From: Spongilla lacustris
Lineage: Eukaryota > Porifera > Demospongiae > Spongillida > Spongillidae
Assembly (NCBI GenBank): GCA_949361645.1
Contig: OX442415.1
Location: forward strand, 26,749,092 to 26,813,091
Direction of reading: 5' to 3'
DNA length: 64,000 bases
The notes under the pieces were generated by a model. The model made no database searches and had not been told where the DNA came from. It saw nothing but the letters and a program-made list of their open reading frames with translations. The translations under genes were made by a program, and so were the position numbers. Shown piece by piece: positions 1,356 to 64,000 of the stretch; the first letter of the stretch is position 1, and every line of letters starts with the position of its first letter.

Positions 1356-1608
1356 TACAGTAGTGGCTCGCACATCCGCACTTTTCACACCTCGCACATC
1401 AGCAAAAATAATTATATACACCAGAAATTGTAGAAACTGTTAGCTTTCATAGCAAACCCTATCGATCACTCCCGCTAGCCATATAATAATATTCACTGTT
1501 TACACGGCCTGCACCTTGGGATATCAATGCAATTAGCATGTACAAACTTTGTTACCACCCCCCAAAACATGCACTGCACCCCCTCCACCCATCACCACTG
1601 CACTATTG

Positions 1609-2632
1609 GGTAATTCCATATATATATTTGCCACCCTTTTTGCATCATTGTCTAGTTTGGACATGCTATTTTCCCCATGTGTTCTCCCCATAGGAGTATG
1701 CAAAATTGCTGTACATTTGTATACCCTATAGTGTACAACTTTTAATATACGACATATCAAAATTTTCATTTTTTTCATAACCTCGGTTAACTCGGTTGAG
1801 CATATCCTGAGTCCTGAAACATTCTGATTGATTTGAATATATCCAAAACATTGCTAAGATAGAGGTCTACATAAAATTAATTGATTTTAATAACTTCTTG
1901 GCATGTTACATGAATAAAGTCATGAATTTGTAATGAATTGTGACCTATCCAAAAATATGAAAATACGAATCACACCAGACTTGTACCATAGTTAGCTAAC
2001 CATACCCCAAACATATTTAGCTGAAAAGCTTACTGGGACACGTATTCTCAGGGCTGGGACAGCACAAAAAGTGGCTGGCAGCCATGTTATGTTTTGACAG
2101 TACCTTAGCTGTGTAAACTGCCCTATGTAAACAAAGAGTTGCAAGGAGGAATAACATGGCTGCCAGCCACTTTTTGTGCTGTCCCAGCCCTGAGAATACG
2201 TGTCCCAGTAAGCTTTTCAGCTAAATATGTTTGGGGTATGGTTAGCTAACTATGGTACAAGTCTGGTGTGATTCGTATTTTCATATTTTTGGATAGGTCA
2301 CAATTCATTACAAATTCATGACTTTATTCATGTAACATGCCAAGAAGTTATTAAAATCAATTAATTTTATGTAGACCTCTATCTTAGCAATGTTTTGGAT
2401 ATATTCAAATCAATCAGAATGTTTCAGGACTCAGGATATGCTCAACCGAGTTAACCGAGGTTATGAAAAAAATGAAGATTTTGATATGTCGTATATTAAA
2501 AGTTGTACACTATAGGGTATACATATGTACAGCACTTTTGCATACTCCTATGGGGAGAACACATGGGGAAAATAGCATGTCCAAACTAGACAATGATGCT
2601 AAAAGGGTGGCAAATATATATATGGAATTACC
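1609..2632. mobile_element. Nested palindromic element, 482-bp arms, TSD CTATTG
   Basis: The left arm 1609-2090 and right arm 2151-2632 are reverse complements with few mismatches and no net indels; a 60-bp loop lies between. The ends are GGTAATTCC and GGAATTACC. CTATTG occurs at 1603-1608 and again at 2633-2638. The opposite arm of the host palindrome (around 6785-6800) keeps the same sequence with a single CTATTG and no insert, which gives the pre-insertion site. No coding sequence is seen; the two similar short ORFs on its arms are mirror images. Family not assigned. Confidence 0.93.
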
Positions 2633-3517
2633 CTATTGCAACACCTAGATGGATATGGTGATTTGATATGACAAATGTGTTATGGTACCATACATTTTGT
2701 AGCTGCAGCATTACATTCAAAAATGGGATATTAGGACAGCTTTGCCAACCATTCATACGGCGAACACAGATCAATTGCGTTCAGGTCTCTGGCTCATTGA
2801 GGCAGATGGACATTGCAGACAAATGTCTGTGGAGTACGATCAGGTTAGGCTGGCTGCCATGGGTACATGTAATACTGCTTCTTTGTATGTGTAGGAACCA
2901 TACACACTTGTGCGTATGCATCTGTGCATGTACATAACATGTGCCTATAAGTATATTGTACGCATGGTAGACATCTGGCTTCATGTAAACATGCCTTTAC
3001 CCTCTTTGTGGTGCCTACTCATGTTGTACAGGTTACCTCTTCACTTAAATTTGTATTACTTGAGCCAGTTTGTTTAGTTCAGCCTTTTGATTTCACTGCG
3101 CCACACTGTATACACCTGTAATATAACACCCAGTGAATGCAGAACGCAACCATCTCCATTAACTTGCTAAAGTACTGTCTTGTCAGGTGGAAAATGAGCA
3201 GGATGCTATAAAATAGGTGTGGATAGCACCCATTATCACAGCTTCAGTTCACTTACATGTACTGAGGCAATCACAGACGATATCAGGATACTTGCTGATA
3301 TCGTACACTTGCTATTGTACAAGGTCCTGGCCATGCAGGGAGAGATTACGTGTGTAACTGGGGTATCACTGCAAGTGATCTGTCTTTTACCTGCACATAG
3401 CTAGCAGTTCATAGGCTAACCTTTACACTGGCAGTGTCTTCAAATGCACGAAGAATTGATTTCAAATGCTCATATTTGCAATTAATTGCTGGATGGTACT
3501 AACCAAGGTAAGAAAAA

Positions 3518-4240
3518 CAGCTAGCCACCATTACCCAATACGTACAAAATAATGCATGGTGTCTCGTCCCACCGCGTGTAGGCAAAGCCACGAAAACGTT
3601 GTTGTGTACGTTTAAATCTTCACTTCAGCTAAATGTAATCAGCATGACGACATTTCGTGCTCTATGGCCAGATCCCCTGGCTAGCTGCTCACGAAGAATT
3701 GTGGTCATGTTGAAGACGCCATACCAGTACTAGTATAGCGACCACTTGCACTATACATTTATTCACTTGCCTCATAGTTTCACACGTATGGTTCCAAATT
3801 TCAGCGACTGTAGGCAGTGCGGTGTGTATGACTGCCCGTTACTGCAGCGGCCGCATGTAGTAAACAGTTGCTCATTCATTAGAAATATCGTGGTCCGAGT
3901 TCCGATATCTAGTGAAAGAGCACCTTTACACGCCTGTGAATTCACAGTGGCAGAAAGTACAGTCATCCTCTGCCTACAGTCGTTGAACTTTAGAATCATA
4001 TGTATGAAACTATGAGGCAAGTGAATAAATGTACGTGGTCGCTATATGGCGTCTTCAACATGACCACAGTTCTTCGTGATCTGGATCCGGCCACAGAGCA
4101 CGAACTGTCGTCATGCTGATTACATTTAGCTGAAATGAAGGTTTAAACATGCGCAACAACGTTGTCGTGGCTTTGCCTACACGCGGTGGGACGAGACACC
4201 GTGAATTATCTTGTACGTACTGGGTAATGGTGGCTAGCTG
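3518..4240. mobile_element. Second nested palindromic element (CAGCTAGCC ends)
   Basis: The ends CAGCTAGCC and GGCTAGCTG begin arms of roughly 330 and 300 bp, with a loop near 3845-3944. The left arm has about 30 bp not matched on the right. The mirrored arm of the host element near 5905-5930 lacks this insert. The left flank is AAGAAAAA, but the right flank is TTTTTCTT, its reverse complement, instead of a direct duplication. The CAG start and 8-bp flank would suit a hAT-like origin; this is tentative. Confidence 0.8.
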
Positions 4241-4836
4241 TTTTTCTTGGCATTTTCCTAGTTGGGGTTCCGTCATTAGTATTCATTGCTACTACTACGA
4301 CGGATTGGAGGTTTTCCTATCGCTGTTACTCATGAATATAATCAGCAATTCAAGAGGTCAGAAATAATAGAGTTGAAAACTCGATTCGCTAACAGGGTAA
4401 AGCTTCTTGCCTCAGCTCAACCTCACCCGCCGCCGATCCCCCCTGCCCCCCCCCCCCCCCCCCCCCCTCCCCATCGGTACCTCCACCGCCTCACCCGCGC
4501 CTATCCCCGCCTACGTGCACTGCCGGTAACCAATAAGGGCAACTAACGCAGTCCTTGTTAATGCTATGTTGTACACCCTCACCTTAATCAGCAGCCGAAC
4601 ATACCGCGTAGGTCAGGGCGCCGAGCCCAGCCGCTATATTTTGCTCCACTAATGGCTAACAAAAACTATAGTAGGCACTAGCCTAACCGTGCGCTCAACA
4701 GCATCTCTAGCTATTGTTATATGTACATAGATCGCAGTGGATCTTTCAGTGTAGACAATTTAGTTGAAACGAACACGAGTTAACTCACGTGACGTATTGT
4801 ACGATCGTAGCTATTAAACAAACAATTCCCGATCCC

Positions 4837-5382
4837 GATCCCTATAGATAATTCTACGCCGAGTCTTTCAATTCCCAGGGGCGGACGCGGGGTGGTGGCA
4901 AAGGGTAGATGGTAAGGGAAAGGGGGTGGGGGGCGTCGCCCCCTCCCGCTCCAGCTAAGGGATATTGGGAAGGGATATGGGGAGCGCTGTAAGCTCCCCC
5001 ACTGGGGTCGAAGCTTTTGCAAGTTCCGCGTTATGAACAATACGGAATTTCATACCCAAAAAGCCACAAAATGCTTATGCCTTAGCTTCAATTCGCGCAA
5101 ACTGCGCATGCACACGTGCTGCAGCAGCTTTGGGTTTGACGTTCGTCTGACGCACAGCCGTTCACTTCCTCTCCAGCACGCTTCAGCTCAGGTTAACGGT
5201 TACAGGTTAACATAATAGTCTTATTATTTTTCATTTATCGCGATGGACAAGTGACAAGTACATGTAATCCATATCACTGTGCATCGCGATCAATGAAAGG
5301 AATTAAAAGACTCGACGTAGAATTATTGAAAACGGCCCCGCTCGAACGGCTCAGCCAAAATTCTTAGTAAGCAATACATGTA
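4837..5382. other. Central loop of the large foldback element
   Basis: Unique sequence between the two large arms. It has a G-rich stretch (about 4870-5000) and a smaller internal inverted repeat, with ATCGCGATG-type arms near 5236 and 5280. No convincing gene was seen. Confidence 0.6.
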
Positions 5383-7109
5383 GGGGATCGGGAATTGTTT
5401 ATTTGATAGCTAAAGTATGCAATACGTCACGTGAGTTAACTTGTGTTCGTTTCAACTATTAAATTGTCTACACTGAAAGATCCACTGCGATCCATGTACA
5501 TATAAGGCCTACAATAGCTAGAGATGCTGTTGAGCGCACGGTTAATTAAGCTAGTGCCTACTAGTTTTTGTTAGCCATTAGTGGAGCAAAATATAGCGGC
5601 TGAGCTCGGCGCCCTGACCTACGCGTTATGTTCGTATGCGGCACGGCTGCTGATTAAGGTGAGGGTGTACAACATAGCATTACCAAGGACTGCGTTAGTT
5701 GCCCTTTTTAGTGCACGTAGTTAAAAATAGGCGCGGGGGTAGGCGCGGGTGAGGTTGAGCTGAGGCAAGAAGCTTTACCCTGTTAGCGAATCGAGTTTTC
5801 AACTCTATTATTTCTGACCTCTTGAATTGTTAATTATATTCATGAGTAACAGAGCGATAGGAAAACCAGTGGTAGCAATGAATACTAATGACGGAACCCC
5901 AACTAGGATAATGCCTTTTTCTTACCTTGGTTTGTACCATACTGCAATAAATTGGGCATTTGAAATCAATTCTTTGTGCATTTGAAGACACTGCCAGTGT
6001 AAAGGTTAGCCTATGAACTGCTAGCTATGTGCAGGTAAAAGACAGATCACTTGCAGTGATACCCCAGTTACACACGTAATCTCTCCCTGCATGGCCAGGA
6101 CCTTGTACAATAGCAAGTGTACGATATCAGCAAGTATCCTGATATCGTCTGTGATTGCCTCAGTACATGTAAGTGAACTGAAGCTGCTGTGATAATGGGT
6201 GCTATCCACACCTATTTTATAGCATCCTGCTCATTTTCCACCTGACAAGACAGTACTTTAGCAAGTTAATGGAGATGGTTGCGTTCTGCATTCACTGGGT
6301 GTTATATTACAGGTGTATACAGTGTGGCGCAGTGAAATCAAAAGGCTGAACTAAACAAACTGGCTCAAGTAATACAAATTTAAGTGAAGAGGTAACCTGT
6401 ACAACATGAGTAGGCACCACAAAGAGGGTAAAGGCATGTTTACATGAAGCCAGATGTCTACCATGCGTACAATATACTTATAGGCACATGTTATGTACAT
6501 GCACAGATGCATACGCACAAGTGTGTATGGTTCCTACACATACAAAGAAGCAGTATTACATGTACCCATGGCAGCCAGCCTAACCTGATCGTACTCCACA
6601 GACATTTGTCTGCAATGTCCATCTGCCTCAATGAGCCAGAGACCTGAACGCAATTGATCTGTGTTCTCCGTATGAATGGTTGGCAAAGCTGTCCTAATAT
6701 CCCATTTTTGAATGTAATGCTGCAGCTACAAAATGTATGGTACCATAACACATTTGTCATATCAAATCACCATATCCATCTAGGTGTTGCAATAGTGCAG
6801 TGGTGATGGGTGGAGGGGGTGCAGTGCATGTTTTGGGGGGTGGTAACAAAGTTTGTACAATTTCTGGTGTATATAATTATTTTTGCTGATGTGCGAGGTG
6901 TGAAAAGTGCGGATGTGCGAGCCACTACTGTAATGTGATGCGGTTTTTGGTGGCTATTACTAAATTATGGTATTGCTTATATTATCCAACCTACTGTCTG
7001 GCCGCAAACACTCGTGCTTGTTCCAGATCTGCGAGTCCAGATTAGCTGATAAGCGGTTTGCTGACTTTGCTGTGGTCCAGATCTGCGATTTGCGGACGTT
7101 GCCACGTGG

Positions 7110-7815: not shown

Positions 7816-8172
7816 CATGCGTTGGTGCCTCTTCGTTTGAAAAAAAAAAACTGACGTGCGACACACAGAAAGGACATGAATATGGTGCGACAAGACGATC
7901 CCGACCTTGCCTTCCGTGCGCTGTTGGTATCTGAACGCTCACGTTTTTAACCTTGTGCGTAGGGGGTCGGTCGATCCGCCCAGTTATTGTATTTAAGCTT
8001 TACAAATTGTGCATCCAAAGCTGACAGCACCCCCCCCCCCCCCCCCCCCCCCCGCGTTTCGTATCGAACAGTGGCAGCCCTCAACCCTTCGTACTCTATA
8101 TATTAGCCAATCGCAAGGTCCCACCCCCGCTTTTAGAAGTCGTGCACTGCACGGCAGTCTTTGCCCGCTGGT
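7816..8172. repeat. Intergenic stretch with homopolymer runs
   Basis: Holds an A-run near 7841-7850 and a C-run of more than 20 bases near 8030-8053. The long overlapping ORFs here arise from the C-run. No gene recognised. Confidence 0.6.
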
Positions 8173-8719
8173 TACGGTGGCCCTGGAGGTCGCGCGACCA
8201 AACATTGTAACGCCACGCGATTTTGCGATTGAACAATGTAGCGACGGTCCGATTCCGCGATCGATCATTGATCCCATTCCGCGACCAAACAAACATCCAC
8301 TTCCGCTACCGTACATCAACGCGAACTAGCATTGATCTATTTTTGGGATCGAACAACGGTCTATTTTTGGGATCGAACAGCGGGCCGTTTCTCCGACCGA
8401 CCAGCCAAACGTACTATGGGATATACATGTAGGCGGTACCTTCCATGACGTCACCGAAAATACTATTATACTTTACAGAGACGAATCATCCTATAGTCCA
8501 CCGTAAGTTAGCACAGGTAACGATGCATATGCACGCACATGCAGGGCTAATTGTACAATACTGAAGGCAGCAGAAGACAATCCCGGTCATACTCGGCTAA
8601 TGCACCACGTGGTTGTTGGGTAAGTGTACGTGTGGGCTACGTGTGTGTATGCTGGCTACATTGGCGTAGTACCAGTAAATTAACGGCATCGCTATACCGG
8701 TCCGCTATACCTATGTGCT

Positions 8720-9225
8720 GTGTTTGTTTGATATGTGCTATCTTTGTGTGTGATATGTCTGTGTTTGTGTGATATGTGCTGTGTGTGCTGTGTGTGTTTG
8801 TGTGATATGTGCTGTGTTATGTGCTGTGTGTTTGTATGTGTGATATGTGCTGTGTGTTTGTATGTGTGATATGTGCTGTGTGTTTGTATGTGTGATATAT
8901 GTGCTGTGGGCTGATATGTGCTGTGTGCTTGTGTACTATGTGCTAAAACAACTAATCCTCCCCCCACTGAGGTGTTCGATTGTCTTTTGTGGTCACACTT
9001 CAGAGATTACTTTTAAAATGCAGCTGTGTGTGTGTGTGTGTGTGACTGTGTGTTTGTGTGTGTGTGTGACTGTGTGTGTTTGTGTGTGTGACTGTGTGTT
9101 GTGGGTATGTGCTATAGCAATTAACCCCCTCACTGAGGTTTTTTTGTGTGGTCACATTGTCAAAGATAACTATATGTGACTGTATGTGTGTGTGTGTGTG
9201 ATTGTGTGTTTTTGTGTGTATCAAT
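8720..9225. repeat. TG-rich micro/minisatellite arrays
   Basis: 8720-8945 is a variable array of about 26 bp built from TGTGTTTGTATGTGTGATA and TGTGCTG blocks. 9027-9110 and 9185-9225 are TG dinucleotide-rich arrays separated by a short unique segment (about 9115-9175). ORFs across them are composition artefacts. Confidence 0.85.
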
Positions 9226-9252
9226 AATATGTTCATGTTTCCTTTATTTCAG

Positions 9253-9480
9253 ATTGCATACTTTAGGATGTCCCACACTTGTAAGGAGTGATTGTGGAAC
9301 AGAAAATGTGCTATTAAATGGCTTTATGATGACCAGTATTGGAGAGCCTGTCCTCTAGGGCACAGCAAACACTTGAGAGCATCCCACCAGGTATATAAAC
9401 TCTCCATGGCAACTATAGAGGGATATGCACCTGCTGTTCAGGTCGTCCAGATCCTTCACACTCTCGCTATCCAATTATGA
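9253..9480 (+). pseudogene. Integrase-core (rve-like) exon fragment
   Basis: A pyrimidine-rich TTTATTTCAG ending at 9252 looks like a splice acceptor. The following frame reads LHTLGCPTLVRSDCGTENVL, which resembles the second-aspartate region of integrase cores (R-x-D-x-G-T-E-N). The frame then stops at 9356-9358. A second frame continues to 9480 with a GHSKHLRASHQ segment that could be a decayed continuation. Only a scrap of the domain is present, so it is not functional here. Assignment rests on one motif. Confidence 0.45.
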
Positions 9481-10786
9481 TGATGAGGCAAATGGTTCTT
9501 TATATTTCATGTAACATATGGTCCTCTCCAGGGCTGGGGAGGAGCCATTTTCATCCTTATCAAGATTCAACAAAACATGTGACTTTGCATGTACTCGAAA
9601 AAGTCATTTTACAAAAATTCGTTCTGCACTTGTTTTATCATTTTGTATGCATATACAAGATGTCAATAGAGGATAGTCATGATTTTCTAACTCTAAGGTT
9701 TCATGATCAGCTTGTTGTACATATCAACATGCAAACACCAGTTTGGACCCTGCAATGAACCACAAAGTTCAAACTGAGTAGCTGGATGCATGGTGGTGAC
9801 AAATCATTGCCTTGTTCACATACATGTAGGTTTTTTTTCTTTACGTAGCCATGAACCAACAAAATCCATTACTGCAAGCATAGATAGTACTGCAAGTAGC
9901 ATCATCACAGCTGATCTAGATAAGTGATGAATGAATGTCTGTTAAGAACCACGTGTACCTCACCCAAATATGGGGCACCTTTTAATGGTGTATCCATACT
10001 TCATTTGAAGCATTCGCCACATTGACCGGTACCCGAGGCACCAGTTGGACGTTTGCAGCTCATTCTATGGCTCCCCAATATGGACACTCTGTATTTTCGT
10101 AGCTCGGCAAAGTACTGACTTTAATGGCCTGATGTACCAGTGTGTATTAAAGGCGTACGTTTTTTTCACAAAGTCCCATGCAGTGCAGTGAGCCTTTTCC
10201 TGAACCATGTTAGCCTGAAGGTATAGCGGGCCGGTATAGCGATGCCGTTAATTTACTGGTACTACGCCAATGTAGCCAGCATACACACACGTACACTTAC
10301 CCTAGAAGGGCGGGCCCTACCACCGCGTTTGACCCTTACCCAACAACCACGTGGTGCATTAGCCGAGTATGACCGGGATTGTCTTCTGCTGCCTTCAGTA
10401 TCGTACTATTAGCCCTGCATGTGCGTGCATATGCATCGTTACCTGTGCTAACTTACGGTGGACTATAGGATGATTCGTCTCTGTAAAGTATAATAATATT
10501 TTCGGTGACGTCACGGAAGGTACCGCCTACATGTATATCCCATAGTACGTTTGGCTGGTCGGTCGGAGAAACGGCCCGCTGTTCGATCCCAAAAATAGAC
10601 CGTTGTTCGATCCCAAAAATAGATCAATGCTAGTTCGCGTTGATGTACGGTAGCGGAAGTGGATGTTTGTTTGGTCGCGGAATGGGATCAATGATCGATC
10701 GCGGAATCGGACCGTTGCTACATTGTTCAATCGCAAAATCGCGTGGCGTTACAATGTTTGGTCGCGCGACCTCCAGGGCCACCGTA

Positions 10787-12927: not shown

Positions 12928-15900
12928 TTATCTTCTCACTTGAAATGGACAACAAATTTCCACAGCCATCATAAGCAGTCCCTCTAGTCTCTCTTGCAAC
13001 ATTACTGATCTTAACCGGGTTTTCACTCTCTTCAATGCAGAGAAACTGCGTTCAGCAGTGCATGAACTAACAGGGACTGCTACGGCGAGTGTATAGACTT
13101 TGCAAAGTTCAGAGAATGCATCCGTCAGATGAAACTTCGGGTTGCAGAGTATGCCTAATACTTCAGAAAACGACGATCCTTTCCTCTTCTCTTCTAGAAT
13201 CGTATCATCTACTGCCGCTTCATCAGTTTCCTCACATATTTCATTATCCCCACTGTCATCTACAAGGTCACCAAACTCATCATCGCTCTCTTCTTCTTGA
13301 TCCGAGATTAAACTTGGGCAGGAAGCCAGAAAATCTGTATACACTCGAGCAAAGTTGAATAACTCTTCCGCACACCTCAATAAGTCTAAGTTGTATTTTT
13401 CACAAAACGATTTAAGATGGCCCTGGAGATCTTGTACCGTGTTAAAAGACGTCTGAAGCACTGTAAAGTTAACGGGAGAAAACACCGACAACATTTGAAA
13501 TAAGGGTTTGCTATCTTGGAAACGACTCCTGAAGGATTGCAAAATAGTGTCAATTACGACATAAAAGGTGCAACGCTTCCACACTTGTTTCGGTGATTCG
13601 GTTTCAGGGGTGTGTGAAATATGTTCTTTTTGCGTATTGCGGCGCACTCGTGTCATTCTCCATTCAATATCGTCAAAACCAACAGTAGCATCCTCCATTA
13701 TACGGATAACATCTTCCGCCTTCTGTCGCATGAGCTCCAGTGAAGACGAAACACACTCTATCATTGTCAATGCTTTAGAAAAATCAATGTTTACAGTCTG
13801 CAAATAGCGACTCAGTGGTCCCGTGTGTGCAAATATTTCGCGAAAGAGGAACAAGGTAGCGAGGAATTGTTTTGTATTGATACTAACAAGCAAACCAGCT
13901 GCCTCTGATCTTTGCTTGTTATCAAACGTGCTGTCATTTTGGATCATTTCGAGGGTTAAGATAATGTATTTGTGCCGCTCCACAAAGGTTCTTATGCACA
14001 TTTCTCGGCTGTTCCACCTTACCGTATTCAAGCGCTTAAGTGAACGGATATGCCGTAACCCTTCAGATTTCTGCACATCTTCAAACAAAGCATGGACCCT
14101 TTGTGATTTGCTAAATAGCACATACAACTTTTCAAGGTTTCCAAACAATGTAACGACGTCTACAGCAACAGTAGCCGTATCTGACAAAACTAGATTGAGC
14201 GAATGTGCATAGCAATGGACGTACATGACATTGCAATTGATTCTTTGCTGTACCAGTGCTTGCAAACCATTGTAGCAGCCACTCATATTAGATGCTCCAT
14301 TGTATGTTTGTGCGACCAATTTTTTAAATGATACATTTTTTTCTTGAAAAGTGGAGACAACAATCCCAAATATATCTTCAGCAGTGGTTCTATTTGCTCT
14401 CTGAAGGGCCAAAAGATGCTCTGAAGCACTACCATCGGTGTGAACAATTCTAACACAAATACTAATTTGTTCTTTGTGAGCAATATCCGGTGTTGTGTCA
14501 ACAATGAGAGCCCAAGCTCTTGAGTGTTCTATTGCCTTGACAACAGCATTAGTTATATTTTGGCTTATTATGGACACTAACTTATTCTGAGTAGTCTTAC
14601 TTAAAAAGGTCAGCTTTGAACCCCGTCCTTTGTGTTCTTTATCTGAAGATGTTTTACTTTGCCTTTCATTCACATCAGTTAAATGCCTGTTCACTGTTGT
14701 ATCATAATGGGAAATTAGCTTCAGTACTTCAATAAAATTTCCTGAGTTGATAGAATCATCACAAATAGTTTCTCTGTGTCCCCTTAGTGACAGACGTTGA
14801 CGACCAAGAAACATTACTACATCCACAATGCGTTGCATAACCGATCTATTCCTTGCCACTTCCAATTTATTTCTAGATGCATCTGCTTTTGCCTGGTCAG
14901 ATAAAGAATTGTTAGATGATGCAAAAATAGTGCCTGTGCCAATACAGCATTGCAATGTGCATTTGAACGTTCATGCTTCAGTACACCTTCATATTGCTTC
15001 TTCCAACTGGAGTAGCCTTCTTTTGTGAATGCACTGCCCTGTTTTACTCTTTGGTTTTCTCCTCGCAGGGAGGAATCGCTAAAAAGCAAACAAGGGATGC
15101 AGAATAGTGCATTTCTACTTCCAGAATAAGAAATCCAGTTCCGTTTAGTGCCATCTGGATGGCTAAACACCTGTTGTGAGCAACTTCTGTACCTATCACC
15201 ACAAAGCACCTTCTTTGTTGTTTTTGGTTGACAGGGACCAAAACTGATAATTTTTTTCTTGACTTCTGGGCTAACCTTTTGACAAACTAGTTTTGCTGGA
15301 TCAATGGACTCAGCAGATGTATCAAAGAGATCAATGATGCCAACTGAAGTGGATGTGGAAGCTTCTATCATACTGCTTCCAGTAGCCTTCATTTCTGCTT
15401 CTCTTGAGTCACTTTCAATATCTTGCATTGGAGACACCCTTATAGAATCACTTTCAATAGCCAGTATCTCCTTACATGAATCACTTTCAATAGCCAGTAT
15501 CTCCTTACATGAATCACTTTCAATAGCTTGCATCTGACAATCATCACTGGAATCACTTCCAATAGCCTGCAGCTCATTTGAGTCACTTCCAATAACTTGC
15601 ATCTGACAATCATCTCTGGAACCACTTCCAATAGCCTGCAGCTCATTTGAGTCACTTCCAATAGCTTGCATCTGACAATCATCTCTGGTACCACTTCCAA
15701 TAGCAGCCTCATGCTCATTTGAGTCAATCCCATTAGCGTGCATCTGAAACTCCCCTGTGGAACCACTTGCAACTGACAGCATCTCTTCGTTTGAGTCACC
15801 TCCAATAGACGGCGGCATCGATATCCCCTCTGTCAAGTCATTTCCACTAGCTATTTCATCCAGTAATCCACAGCTTCTTAACAGTGTGCTGTCAAGCCTG

Positions 15901-16112
15901 TCATATGTCTCATATTGCTCTGTACCACTTCCACTGATCTCAATCTGCTCAATCGATGGCGCAGTTGCTTTGTCGTCGGTACTCATGGGATGAAAAGACC
16001 TCTTTAAATACTCATCCATGAAAGCACTCAGTTTAAGGTTCTCATCCGTTCTTTGCTTTTTTAAACTGCGGTATGCTGCACCAGATTTCTTCCTACAACC
16101 TTTAGACTCCAT
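12928..16112 (-). pseudogene. hAT transposase (ZMYM1/DUF4371-like), frameshifted
   Basis: Two overlapping minus-strand frames make one protein. The first, 431 aa (16112 to 14817), has a lysine/arginine-rich start, an acidic serine-rich section with repeated SDSNELQAIGS-type units (about residues 130-235), then a TTF-type zinc finger region (about 300-395: RNWISYSGSRNALFCIPCLL, FTKEGYSSWKK, HERSNAHCNAV). The second, 675 aa (14955 to 12928), continues with FLGRQRLSLRGHRE, the catalytic-core signature VDTTPDIAHKEQ (Asp153), TYNGASNMSG (216-225), CYAHSLNLV and the C-terminal CTAERSFSALKRVKTRLRS dimerisation block. The frame changes near a T5 run at 14927-14931. The second catalytic Asp, normally in a YDGASNMSG context, is Asn219. 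The copy is therefore probably inactive twice over. An unannotated intron instead of a frameshift is less likely. Confidence 0.88.
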
Positions 16113-60710: not shown

Positions 60711-60824
60711 TTCTAATCATTAAAAATACTCACCTCTCCTTGGGTCTTGGGACAGCTCAATACCACCTTGATTCCTTCAGGAGATATAGAGGGGGGATGA
60801 GAGTGAGTTTTGGAATCAAAAGTA

Positions 60825-63800
60825 CAGTGCTCCAAATGATAAGCTGCCAAAACTGACTTTTTCAGTTATTGGCCTATATCTTTTGAACCAATCATACTTA
60901 AAGCAGGGCAATTACTTTTTCTGATTCAGCAAACACTTTTGTGTAAGAATCTGTGTTGTTAATTCAATTAGCACATGTAAACAAAGCTTGGCTAAGTGTA
61001 AACAAATCACGGTCAAAATCTCATTTTTCAATTATAATTCCCCCCAGGAATGTAACTATCAATTCAAATTTATTTTATGAGTACAGCATTAGGTCTTCTA
61101 TATATATAGTTGATTTGGTGTCTTAAGTCCTACTGGTTGGGAAGATCGGTACGGATTGATGAAATTTTCGAGGACGTTCGCGGTTCGCTGAAATTCGGAC
61201 GATTTAGTTCGACTTAAGAAATAATTTTTACATGTTGTTACAGAAAAGTGGTAGGAGCATCTGTATATATCTTTTTTATTATGTACGGCGTTTGCGAAGG
61301 TTTGCAATACGAGATAGAAAGCTAAAAAGCATAAATTTTTTCATACGAAATTAATTAATCCGTTCCTCTCCGTAAGCTATTGCTTACGTGACGTTACAGT
61401 CGAGCTGGCTCATTTATTTATTCATTCCCTTGAGGTGCGTTGTAACTGGAGTTTGCGATTGATGTCGTCGTCGAATGTTTCTTTGTCTACGGGTTCTTTT
61501 CAGAACCAAGCTGCAACCGTAGATGCCTTGGAAACTGCGAGTGTTCCCAAGACAGACGGTGTTAAGCGACGAAAGCGAGACATGTCAGTGTTGTTAGAAC
61601 AAGCGAGTAGTTCGGAAGGAGTCACCAGTTCTGGAAAAGACACAAGATCATGCAGCGCGAGGGCAAATGATAAACTGCACGCATTATTCGTGTCAAGAAA
61701 ATCTCCCGAAAGCAAAGTTACGTGCACAACAAGCAGCGTTTTGAAAGAGGACAGGCCTGTGTTTGACAGAGGAATGGATAGTTTGGTAATGTACGTAGAA
61801 CGAAATGCTACCTGGGAACTGCAGAAAGCATTTGCAATTCTTGTGATGGGTACAGCTCTAGTGGACTGGAACGAAGGTGTATGTGAAGCAGCACAAAAGG
61901 CTTCTAATGTGACACATTTTTCAGAACACACAATACGTAACTGGATGCAGCTATACATTCAATCCACATCAGACCTTTTATCAGATGGAAAGGACACAAT
62001 TACGGATCAAGATATAGAGGAAAGTTTGGCATCAGAGAAAGGACATTTTGATCGACTGGATTCCTTAATTTCAGATGAAGATTTTCAGCTAAGTGCTCGT
62101 ACATACGTTAGAAGCAATGCATGCAAAAAGGGAGAACCAAATCTCACAAGTGGTATGTTTGCAGTTTGGGTAAAACAAAAGTATGACCATGACATCAGTG
62201 AAGAAACAGCAAGGTTATGGCTTCACAAACTGGGATTTGGGCATACACATCACCAAAAAGGAGTTTACTTTGATGGACACGAGCGCCAAGATGTTGCGTA
62301 ACACAGGAGTGAATTTTTAAGAATTAGATAAAATAACAATTACTCCAAGTAATTTAACTCCACTATGCCCAGAAGGTGTAAAGCCGTTAATTAGGGTAGT
62401 GCATGATGAGAGTACATACTATGCCAACTGTGATCAGTCGTACTTTTGGGGTGACGAGCACACAAATGTTTTAAAGCAAAAATCCTTGGGACAATCTATA
62501 ATGGTATCTGATTTTGTAGATAATGTTAATGAATTTTTACAGTTTAATGATAGTAAAGCTAGTGTTATGATTGAGGTGCACAAGGATGGATACTTCAATA
62601 ATGAAGGATTAATGAAGCAAGTTGAGAAAGCAGTGGATATTTTTGAACTCAAATACCCGCATGCAAGAGGACTGTTTTTATTTGGCAATGCTCCATCCCA
62701 CAGGAAAATAGCCAACAACCAATTAAACGTAGATAAAATGAATGTTAGCTCTGGGGGGAAACAACCAGTAATGAGAGATACAGTTTGGAATGGCAATGTA
62801 CAGCGCATGGTTTTAGATGATGGTAGACCTAAAGGCATGACAATAGTTCTAAAAGAAAGAGGTGTTGATACTCATGGTATGAATGCAGAGAAGATGAGGG
62901 AAAAGTTGAACACATATGAAGACTTTAAAATTCAAAAAACTATACTAGAAGAGTATGTTGAACAAAGGGGTCATTTATGTTTATACTATCCTAAGTATCA
63001 TTGTGAACTCAGTCCCATTGAGAGAATTTGGTGCCATTCCAAAAAGCACACAAGAGCTTATGCAAATGGGACAATCACAAGACTGCGGAAAATTGTACCA
63101 GAAGGACTTGAAACTTGTACAAGTGACATGATAAGTAAATATTTTAGAACTTGTAGGGATTATGAACAAGCGTATAGAGAAGGATGCCTTGGAAAAGATG
63201 TTGAAGTTAGAGTAAAAGTATACAAGTCACACAGAAAAGTAACTAATGACAGTAGTTTGTTAATAATTCTTTTATGCATGTAGCTAGCTTGATTGATTCT
63301 TCAACGTGCGTATCCTGTATGTTTTTGTGCTACATGTGTACGTTTGTGTATACATGTATATGTACTCATTTATTGCATGCTATGAAGTTGAATTACATGT
63401 ATATGTACGAAGAATGCAAGTACTCGGTACTCGAACTCGTACTCACGAACAAATTCATTTCGCGCGCGGCGCGTAAATATGACGTTAAAACGTCACGGAT
63501 TTCGTAAATGAGGATGAAACTACAATAAATTTAAGCTTTTTAGCTTTCTATCTCGTATTGAAAACCTTCGCAAACGCCGTACATAATAAAAAAGATATAT
63601 ACAGATGCTCCTACCACTTTTCTGTAACAACATGTAAAAATTATTTCTTAAGTCGAACTAAATCGTCCGAATTTCAGCGAACCGCGAACGTCCTCGAAAA
63701 TTTCATCAATCCGTACCGATCTTCCCAACCAGTAGGACTTAAGACACCAAATCAACTATATATATAGAAGACCTAATGCTGTACTCATAAAATAAATTTG

Positions 63801-64000
63801 AATTGATAGTTACATTCCTGGGGGGAATTATAATTGAAAAATGAGATTTTGACCGTGATTTGTTTACACTTAGCCAAGCTTTGTTTACATGTGCTAATTG
63901 AATTAACAACACAGATTCTTACACAAAAGTGTTTGCTGAATCAGAAAAAGTAATTGCCCTGCTTTAAGTATGATTGGTTCAAAAGATATAGGCCAATAAC
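60825..64000 (+). mobile_element. Tc1/mariner (IS630-like) element with ~0.5-kb TIRs, cut by window end
   Basis: A TA at 60823-60824 precedes CAGTGCTCCAAATGATAAGC. From 60868 to about 61340 the sequence is the reverse complement of 63528 to 64000, so each terminal repeat is at least 470 bp and, if symmetric, about 515 bp. The right end should lie about 43 bp past the window. The transposase pseudogene (61435-63283) sits between. Mirror ORFs in the repeats (61098-61307 and 63558-63767) are not genes. Confidence 0.9.
61435..63283 (+). pseudogene. DDE transposase (IS630/Tc1-like), inactivated
   Basis: Two frames: 61435-62301 (288 aa, with a basic, low-complexity start and a helical DNA-binding region including FSEHTIRNWMQLY and ISEETARLWLHKLGFGH) and 62399-63283 (294 aa, the catalytic core). 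Core motifs: VHDESTYYANCDQSYFW with the first Asp (residue 3 of the second frame), LFLFGNAPSHRK where the second Asp is expected but Gly96 (GGC) stands, and CELSPIERIW with Glu208. Between the frames are a TAA at about 62299 and one frameshift near 62330, while the linking sequence still reads as the family. So three separate lesions. Family placement rests on the D..D-N-A..E-L-x-P-I-E layout. Confidence 0.85.

What the first reader, a model, noticed from the sequence alone, without database searches (positions are those of the whole stretch)
1356..6932. Three-level nest of palindromes with an internal pre-insertion control
A large foldback element keeps two near-complementary arms. Its left arm carries two further foldback elements absent from the right arm. 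The right arm therefore preserves both empty sites, so the order of events and exact insert boundaries can be read from one locus. Palindromes of this size are usually unstable in genomes and often lost in assemblies.
Basis: seen in the sequence. Interest (0 to 1): 0.8.

Follow-up and report, generated by a model that had tools for sequence, protein, structure and literature searches.

The report
Palindromic jumping gene with two inserts
A large mirror-image mobile DNA element carries two other mirror-image elements, one in each of its arms, so each arm shows what the other looked like before it was hit; it is a clean example of known kinds of mobile DNA rather than a new kind.

Summary
The outer element A (1358-6930, TA on both sides) carries two independent inserts, one per arm. 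B (1608-2633, 1026 bp, 4-bp duplication TATT) is in the left arm. C (4249-5915, 8-bp duplication TTTTTCTT) is in the right arm. Each arm therefore keeps the empty site of the other arm's insert; other A copies show both sites empty. The nest has two levels. The 100 bp at 1439-1538 are an ancestral part of A, deleted from the right arm. All three elements belong to dispersed families in the same 248.6-Mb assembly, which argues strongly against an artefact. A shares its ends with an element encoding a DDE_1/Tc5-HTH transposase (DD32D, pogo/Tigger type), so A is probably its non-autonomous derivative. Transposases for B and C were not found. In A and B, variants recur in both arms of the same copy more often than expected, pointing to patchy arm-to-arm copying, similar to what has been proposed for Drosophila Galileo. 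New members of a known kind; modest interest.

The parts
1358..6930 (.). Element A: outer foldback (5573 bp with inserts; 2868 bp by arithmetic without B, C and one copy of each duplication), termini CAGTAGTGGCTCGC...
   Evidence: dispersed family
1356..1357 (.). TA target duplication, left
6931..6932 (.). TA target duplication, right
1439..1538 (+). 100-bp ancestral arm segment, missing from the right arm (GTA at both edges)
   Evidence: present in the arms of other A copies; also within the match of window 1356-1566 to both ends of L091
1608..2633 (.). Element B: 1026-bp near-perfect palindrome, TIR GGGTAATTCCATATATATATTTGCCACCC, inserted in A's left arm
1604..1607 (+). B target duplication TATT, left
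2634..2637 (+). B target duplication TATT, right
6791..6794 (-). Empty B site (TATT read on the minus strand) in A's right arm
   Evidence: the same site in other A copies
3510..4248 (.). A's own centre (inner part of the palindrome plus loop), not an insert
3510..3517 (-). Empty C site (TTTTTCTT on the minus strand) in A's left arm
4249..5915 (.). Element C: 1667-bp foldback, TIR GGCATTTTCCTAGTTGGGG..., inserted in A's right arm
4241..4248 (+). C target duplication TTTTTCTT, left
5916..5923 (+). C target duplication TTTTTCTT, right
5924..6930 (.). A's right arm outside C (pairs with left-arm pieces 1358-1438, 1539-1607 and 2638-3509)

Best explanation
The locus is a non-autonomous foldback DNA transposon (A) hit later by two unrelated non-autonomous foldback DNA transposons, one in each arm. 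A inserted at a TA and is mobilised by a pogo/Tigger-type DDE transposase acting on its CAGTAGYGGCTCGC ends (inferred from shared ends with L091). B then inserted in the left arm, duplicating TATT, and C in the right arm, duplicating TTTTTCTT (shown by empty sites and duplications). The mutual order of B and C is unknown. A 100-bp segment was lost from the right arm (shown by comparison with other copies). The arms are kept alike by tract-wise copying from one arm to the other, most likely gene conversion or repair in which a broken arm uses its partner as template (inferred from variants that sit in both arms of the same copy); B, C and the deletion have not been copied across.
For: Exact duplications and empty sites at the locus. 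In other A-related elements the C-site motif (up to 3 edits) is found in both arms of 6 of 10, and the B-site motif (up to 1 edit) in both arms of 6 of 10. TA precedes 18 of 18 A-type ends found with a pattern that did not ask for TA, including both ends of 6 copies; TA also flanks both ends of L069 and L091. B: 40 scored places, 38 of at least 927 bp; 21 of 27 copies are exactly 1026 bp, range 1017-1028, and 25 of 27 have a 4-bp duplication; the window copy is identical over 1026 bp to the copy at C9:8507985. C: 8-bp duplication exact in 6 of 10 copies. A's likely transposase source: L091 matches window 1356-1566 at 95.8% and 94.8% at its two ends and encodes DDE_1 (E 1.5e-28) plus HTH_Tnp_Tc5, DD32D. 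Arm copying: in 27 B copies, 27 site+base variants occur in both arms against 4.3 expected (maximum 13 in 5000 permutations), 10 of them in the same set of copies in both arms; 87 copy-cells against a mean of 24 when arms are re-paired (maximum 48). In 7 A copies, 27 private variants are in both arms and 47 in one.
Against: Only L091 itself is identical to L091's transposase among the places scored; its frame has a stop after residue 374, and the next best long matches are 67-68%, so a working enzyme for A today is not shown. No transposase was found for B or C. 38 of 42 private B variants are in one arm only. In A the own partner arm is the best match of both arms in only 3 of 8 pairs outside the 100%-identical subfamily; within-copy identity is 96.9-99.4% while other copies reach 99.2%. 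12 of the 27 both-arm private A variants come from one copy, C15:8.41. The re-pairing control ignores relatedness of copies, and mutation hot spots were not modelled beyond the base changed. In C copies 3 of 10 show no matching duplication.
Confidence: 0.9

Rival explanations
1. One reading: 3510-4248 is a second foldback inserted in the left arm and 4249-5915 is A's loop, so the right arm keeps both empty sites.
For: 3510-4248 is itself palindromic (79% with 94 gap positions) and its left-hand neighbour pairs with 5916-5963.
Against: The 3460-4248 block matches in one alignment in 7 of 10 other A-related elements. 4249-5915 has its own family with the same termini at other sites, 8-bp duplications there, and TTTTTCTT on both sides here.
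Confidence: 0.02
2. Assembly artefact: inverted contig joins or chimeric foldback reads produced the palindrome.
For: Foldback artefacts in long reads are a known problem (PMC12870357, title and start of abstract in a search listing only).
Against: Copies at other sites with different flanks and target duplications for all three families. A read artefact would not be bounded by TA, 4-bp and 8-bp duplications.
Confidence: 0.02
3. Arms are alike only because the copies are young; no arm-to-arm copying is needed.
For: Aligned bases of A copies differ by about 1-4% outside the distant subfamily; the window B has an identical copy elsewhere; the weak sister-arm signal in A.
Against: Independent mutation rarely puts the same derived base in both arms of the same copies, as seen at 27 B variants against 4.3 expected and for 27 private A variants. 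Swapping of arms by inversion of the loop would move a variant, not double it.
Confidence: 0.12
4. C is mobilised by an IS1595/Merlin-type transposase.
For: 8-bp duplication and GG termini fit Merlin (recalled); 57 IS1595-domain matches exist in the genome, one about 2 kb from a C fragment.
Against: That nearby domain lies between inverted repeats of its own that do not match C. A hAT-type enzyme also gives 8 bp (PMC10741241, passages).
Confidence: 0.3

Closest known systems
pogo/Tigger-type Tc1/mariner elements
   Same: TA duplication; DDE_1 + Tc5-type HTH transposase with DD32D spacing in the element that shares A's ends.
   Different: Arms of about 1.2-1.9 kb in L091, L069 and A copies, against very short TIRs (<30 bp) for most Passer-type pogo elements (PMC9976928, passages). 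Long TIRs are known in Minos and in ciliate Tec elements (PMC7325037, passages).
Galileo (P-superfamily foldback-like element of Drosophila)
   Same: Long arms, tandem repeats inside arms, arms of one copy 98-100% alike with repair from a partner TIR proposed (PMC3573991, passages); secondary TE insertions in one arm, said to be able to pass to the other (PMC4168063, passages). In Table 2 of PMC2775673 two of four copies have arms 0.2-0.7% apart, the other two 5.7-6.3% (passages).
   Different: Different transposase and duplication (7-8 bp in Galileo). Here each insert is still in one arm only.
Tetris and other Foldback (mostly Mutator) elements
   Same: Foldback architecture, tandem repeats in the TIRs, homogenisation suspected (PMC4079207, passages).
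   Different: A's likely transposase is pogo-type, not Mutator-type; TA duplication.
C. elegans Tc4/Tc6 palindromic elements (recalled; the search listed no paper)
   Same: Near-perfect palindromic non-autonomous elements of 1-2 kb (recalled).
   Different: B's 4-bp duplication of variable sequence and its termini differ from what I recall for these.
Sola transposons
   Same: 4-bp duplications and TIRs up to 1124 bp (PMC10741241, passages) fit B's anatomy.
   Different: No transposase linked to B, so membership is untested.

Membership tests
pogo/Tigger (Tc1/mariner) for A | TA target duplication | tested here: met
   TA before 18 of 18 A-type ends found without TA in the pattern, both ends of 6 copies among them; also L069 and L091. 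The pattern contained TA, so its 4 copies are no independent test.
pogo/Tigger (Tc1/mariner) for A | DDE_1 transposase with DDxD triad in an element with the same ends | tested here: met
   L091: DDE_1 E 1.5e-28, HTH_Tnp_Tc5 E 3.3e-6, DD32D
pogo/Tigger (Tc1/mariner) for A | The transposase actually moves A | not testable with these tools
   needs an excision or integration assay
Foldback elements (architectural class) for A, B, C | Long inverted arms making up most of the element, with target duplication, in several copies | tested here: met
Mutator-type foldback for A | TSD of 7-12 bp, MULE transposase | tested here: not met
   A has a 2-bp TA duplication and its relative has DDE_1; the MULE range is from PMC10741241 (passages). 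No MULE profile was searched.
Merlin/IS1595 for C | Transposase with PF12762 inside an element with C's ends | tested here: inconclusive
   57 domain matches, one near a C fragment but between other inverted repeats; the ends of the other 56 were not examined
hAT for C | 8-bp duplication and short TIRs | tested here: inconclusive
   8 bp met in 6 of 10 copies, but the arms are hundreds of bp long; no hAT gene linked to C ends
Sola for B | 4-bp duplication | tested here: met
   25 of 27; other superfamilies such as Ginger also give 4 bp (PMC10741241, passages)
Sola for B | Sola transposase in an element with B's ends | not tested
   one long element with B ends (L094) proved to be B with a retrotransposon-like insert; no Sola profile was searched

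The most novel reading that the evidence does not exclude
A pogo-type lineage in this genome has become a true foldback system (arms of 1.2-1.9 kb, some carried by elements with an open transposase frame), and its own and other palindromic elements keep their arms alike by repeated tract-wise arm-to-arm copying. One-armed inserts such as B and C would then be markers that copying cannot cross, making the nest a natural assay for conversion tract limits in palindromes.
Probability: 0.45. Interest if true: 0.5.

Novelty: new member of a known kind. Interest (0 to 1): 0.35.

Why it matters
The nest gives exact insert ends and target duplications without a second genome, and the A and B families give a countable signal of arm-to-arm copying in palindromic transposons. 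It also extends foldback architecture to pogo-type elements with kilobase arms. None of this overturns current views: foldback elements, TE insertions into their arms and alike arms within a copy are described (PMC4168063, PMC3573991, PMC4079207, passages).

Tried and rejected
My own first reading of 1439-1538 as an insertion (one search shows it in other A copies' arms). Arm divergence as an insertion clock: C's arms agree at 448 of 470 aligned bases with 107 gap positions, yet C lies inside A, whose outer arms agree at 866 of 873. C15:8.41 and C1:0.20 as two independent A copies with the same one-armed insert: their flanks match too, so they are duplicates, and C1:0.20 was dropped.

Led nowhere: L090 as an autonomous A partner (longest frame 116 aa); L092 as a source of C's transposase; L094 as an autonomous B partner (B with a retrotransposon-like insert). 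Paper searches gave nothing that I could use on sponge Tigger palindromes or Tc4/Tc6; led to PMC7325037. The host was not identified: the transposase search lists Ephydatia-style ids (Em0008g875a at 50% over 93%, Em0478g1a at 72% over 40% of the query; that 'Em' means Ephydatia muelleri is recalled), so a sponge is only a lead. Rows left out of counts: L032 was not put into the A-arm alignment (29 of 30 arm loci used); 8 of those 29 arms were dropped; L062 gave no second B end (27 of 28 loci counted); L067 and L068 are minus-strand doubles of L039 and L040 and were not counted.
Full report
WHAT IS THERE. The region 1356-6932 is a large foldback. Self-comparison gives outer ends 1356-1438 / 6850-6932, arms 2633-3517 / 5916-6795, an inner palindrome 3510-4248, and two further foldbacks, 1605-2636 and 4249-5915. 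The longest exact inverted match expected by chance in 64 kb is estimated at about 15-16 bases.

CORRECT NESTING. Exact boundaries: A runs from CAG at 1358 to CTG at 6930 with TA on both sides. B is 1608-2633 (1026 bp) with TATT at 1604-1607 and 2634-2637. C is 4249-5915 (1667 bp) with TTTTTCTT at 4241-4248 and 5916-5923. B's empty site (TATT) is in the right arm at 6791-6794. C's empty site is in the LEFT arm at 3510-3517: the left arm reads CCAAGGTAAGAAAAACAGCTAGCC, the complement of the right arm with C and one duplication left out. Against that, 3460-4248 matches in one alignment in 7 of 10 other A-related elements (79-95%; two of the seven, C1:0.20 and C15:8.41, are duplicates of each other), in two pieces in 1, in short pieces in L069 and not in L091, while C has its own family with the same termini at other sites. 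The nest therefore has two levels, with two sibling inserts.

THE THIRD DIFFERENCE BETWEEN THE ARMS. 1439-1538 is missing from the right arm. Other A copies carry this segment in their arms, and it lies within the stretch where window 1356-1566 matches both ends of L091. So it is a deletion in the right arm, with GTA at both edges, and the right arm is not a pure pre-insertion state. A's arms also carry a minisatellite of 19-bp-type units. Both arms of the window copy have the same very short allele and both arms of C25:1.84 share one identical allele; the two arms of C5:9.78, C14:4.16 and C25:5.62 differ (only one arm of C1:0.20 and C15:8.41 could be read).

THE FAMILIES. A: a DNA search with the right arm gives 100 matches, a lower bound because 40 of 500 candidates were scored. 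TA precedes all 18 A-type ends found, whose pattern did not include TA. Four copies for which both ends were found are 3138-3449 bp (that pattern did include TA, and four other merged copies did not give both ends). B: 40 scored places of 139 candidates, 38 of them at least 927 bp. Of 28 loci examined 27 gave both ends; 21 of 27 are exactly 1026 bp (range 1017-1028) and 25 of 27 have an exact 4-bp duplication of variable sequence. The window copy equals the C9:8507985 copy in all 1026 bases. C: ten copies with ends fetched; 6 have an exact 8-bp duplication, 1 has 7 matching bases shifted by one, 3 show none. Families with their own target duplications argue strongly against an assembly artefact, though no reads were seen.

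WHAT MOVES A. L091 (C25:1340535-1345862) has A's ends at both sides (window 1356-1566 at 95.8% and 94.8%), TA on both sides, arms of about 1.2 kb, and a 374-aa open frame with DDE_1 (E 1.5e-28) and HTH_Tnp_Tc5; the three aspartates have DD32D spacing. A stop separates it from a further 198-aa frame, which matches no Pfam family; it was left as it is. In the genome this protein's next best long matches are 67-68%, five of them with equal scores and 567-aa open frames at C1, C5, C6, C7 and C19; one partial match is 80% over 89 residues (110 of 277 candidates scored). Only the C19 one was fetched (L093): arms of at least 1453 bp at 99.8% lie on both sides of the frame, cut by the end of the fetched stretch, and TA|CAGTACCGGCTCGC, part of an 18-base stretch four substitutions from A's terminus, stands 76 bp outside the point where the match is cut; its other end was not seen. 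L069, another element with A's terminus, is a 3.87-kb palindrome over its whole length with no frame above 106 aa.

ARM-TO-ARM COPYING. For 27 B copies, 65 variants were scored in left arms and 62 in right arms over 488 columns; 27 are the same base at the same site in both arms, against 4.3 expected when sites are permuted among columns with the same common base (maximum 13 of 5000). Ten of these are in exactly the same set of copies in both arms. Pairing right arms with the wrong copies lowers the both-arm cells from 87 to a mean of 24 (maximum 48); this control ignores relatedness. Of 42 variants private to one copy, 4 are in both arms. For A, 21 of 29 arms were used; in 7 copies with both arms, 27 private variants are in both arms and 47 in one (15 and 38 without C15:8.41); in the window copy 3 and 1. 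Against a strong effect: the own partner is the best match of both arms in only 3 of 8 A pairs outside a subfamily that is 100% identical throughout, within-copy identity is 96.9-99.4% and other copies reach 99.2%. Left arms of different B copies are on average more alike (16 differences) than the two arms of one copy (19, about 10 of which lie at the loop edge). The reading I prefer is slow, patchy conversion, partly in ancestral masters. For Galileo, 98-100% identity of the TIRs of one copy is in print together with a repair model that copies one TIR onto the other (PMC3573991, passages), and transfer of a TE insertion from one arm to the other has been proposed (PMC4168063, passages); a table in PMC2775673 shows arms 0.2-0.7% apart in two of four copies and 5.7-6.3% in the other two (passages). 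In the window neither insert has been transferred.

WHAT IS SHOWN AND WHAT IS INFERRED. Shown: anatomy, duplications, empty sites, families, shared ends with a DDE_1 element, variants in both arms. Inferred: that this transposase moves A, that both-arm variants come from conversion or repair, that B and C are cut-and-paste elements. Unknown: B's and C's enzymes, the order of B and C, the host species.

VERDICT. A well-resolved nest of non-autonomous foldback DNA transposons. New members of a known kind; interest 0.35.

Noticed in passing
window 8173-10786: A further foldback (arms 8173-8712 / 10219-10786, 93.8% with 28 gap positions) with ends TACGGTGGCCCTGGAGG and a 6-bp direct repeat GCTGGT on both sides.
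   Followed up: partly
window 60825-64000: TA|CAGTGCTCCAAATG at 60823-60838, inverted repeats of at least 477 bp at 99.4% (cut by the window end, so the terminus is a reading) around ORFs with a DDE_3 match below the curated cut-off: possibly a second Tc1/mariner-type element with long arms.
   Followed up: partly
window 12928-16112 (minus): Two overlapping ORFs; the 680-aa one has DUF4371 and hAT dimerisation domains, the 431-aa one has no Pfam match: a hAT-type transposase gene.
   Followed up: no
L094 49-5852: A B copy (TGCA on both sides) carrying an insert of about 4.8 kb in one arm, whose ORFs read like a gypsy-type gag-pol (my reading; no family search): another one-armed insert.
   Followed up: partly
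G000 C6:7108022-7110527: A C-family copy ends at 7109497 and a B copy starts at 7109501, so B may have inserted at a C end there.
   Followed up: no
L022 and L024: An insert of roughly 280 bp sits in one arm only of an A copy and of its segmental duplicate.
   Followed up: partly
window 4446-4467 and 8030-8053: Runs of 22 and 24 C, the first inside element C.
   Followed up: no
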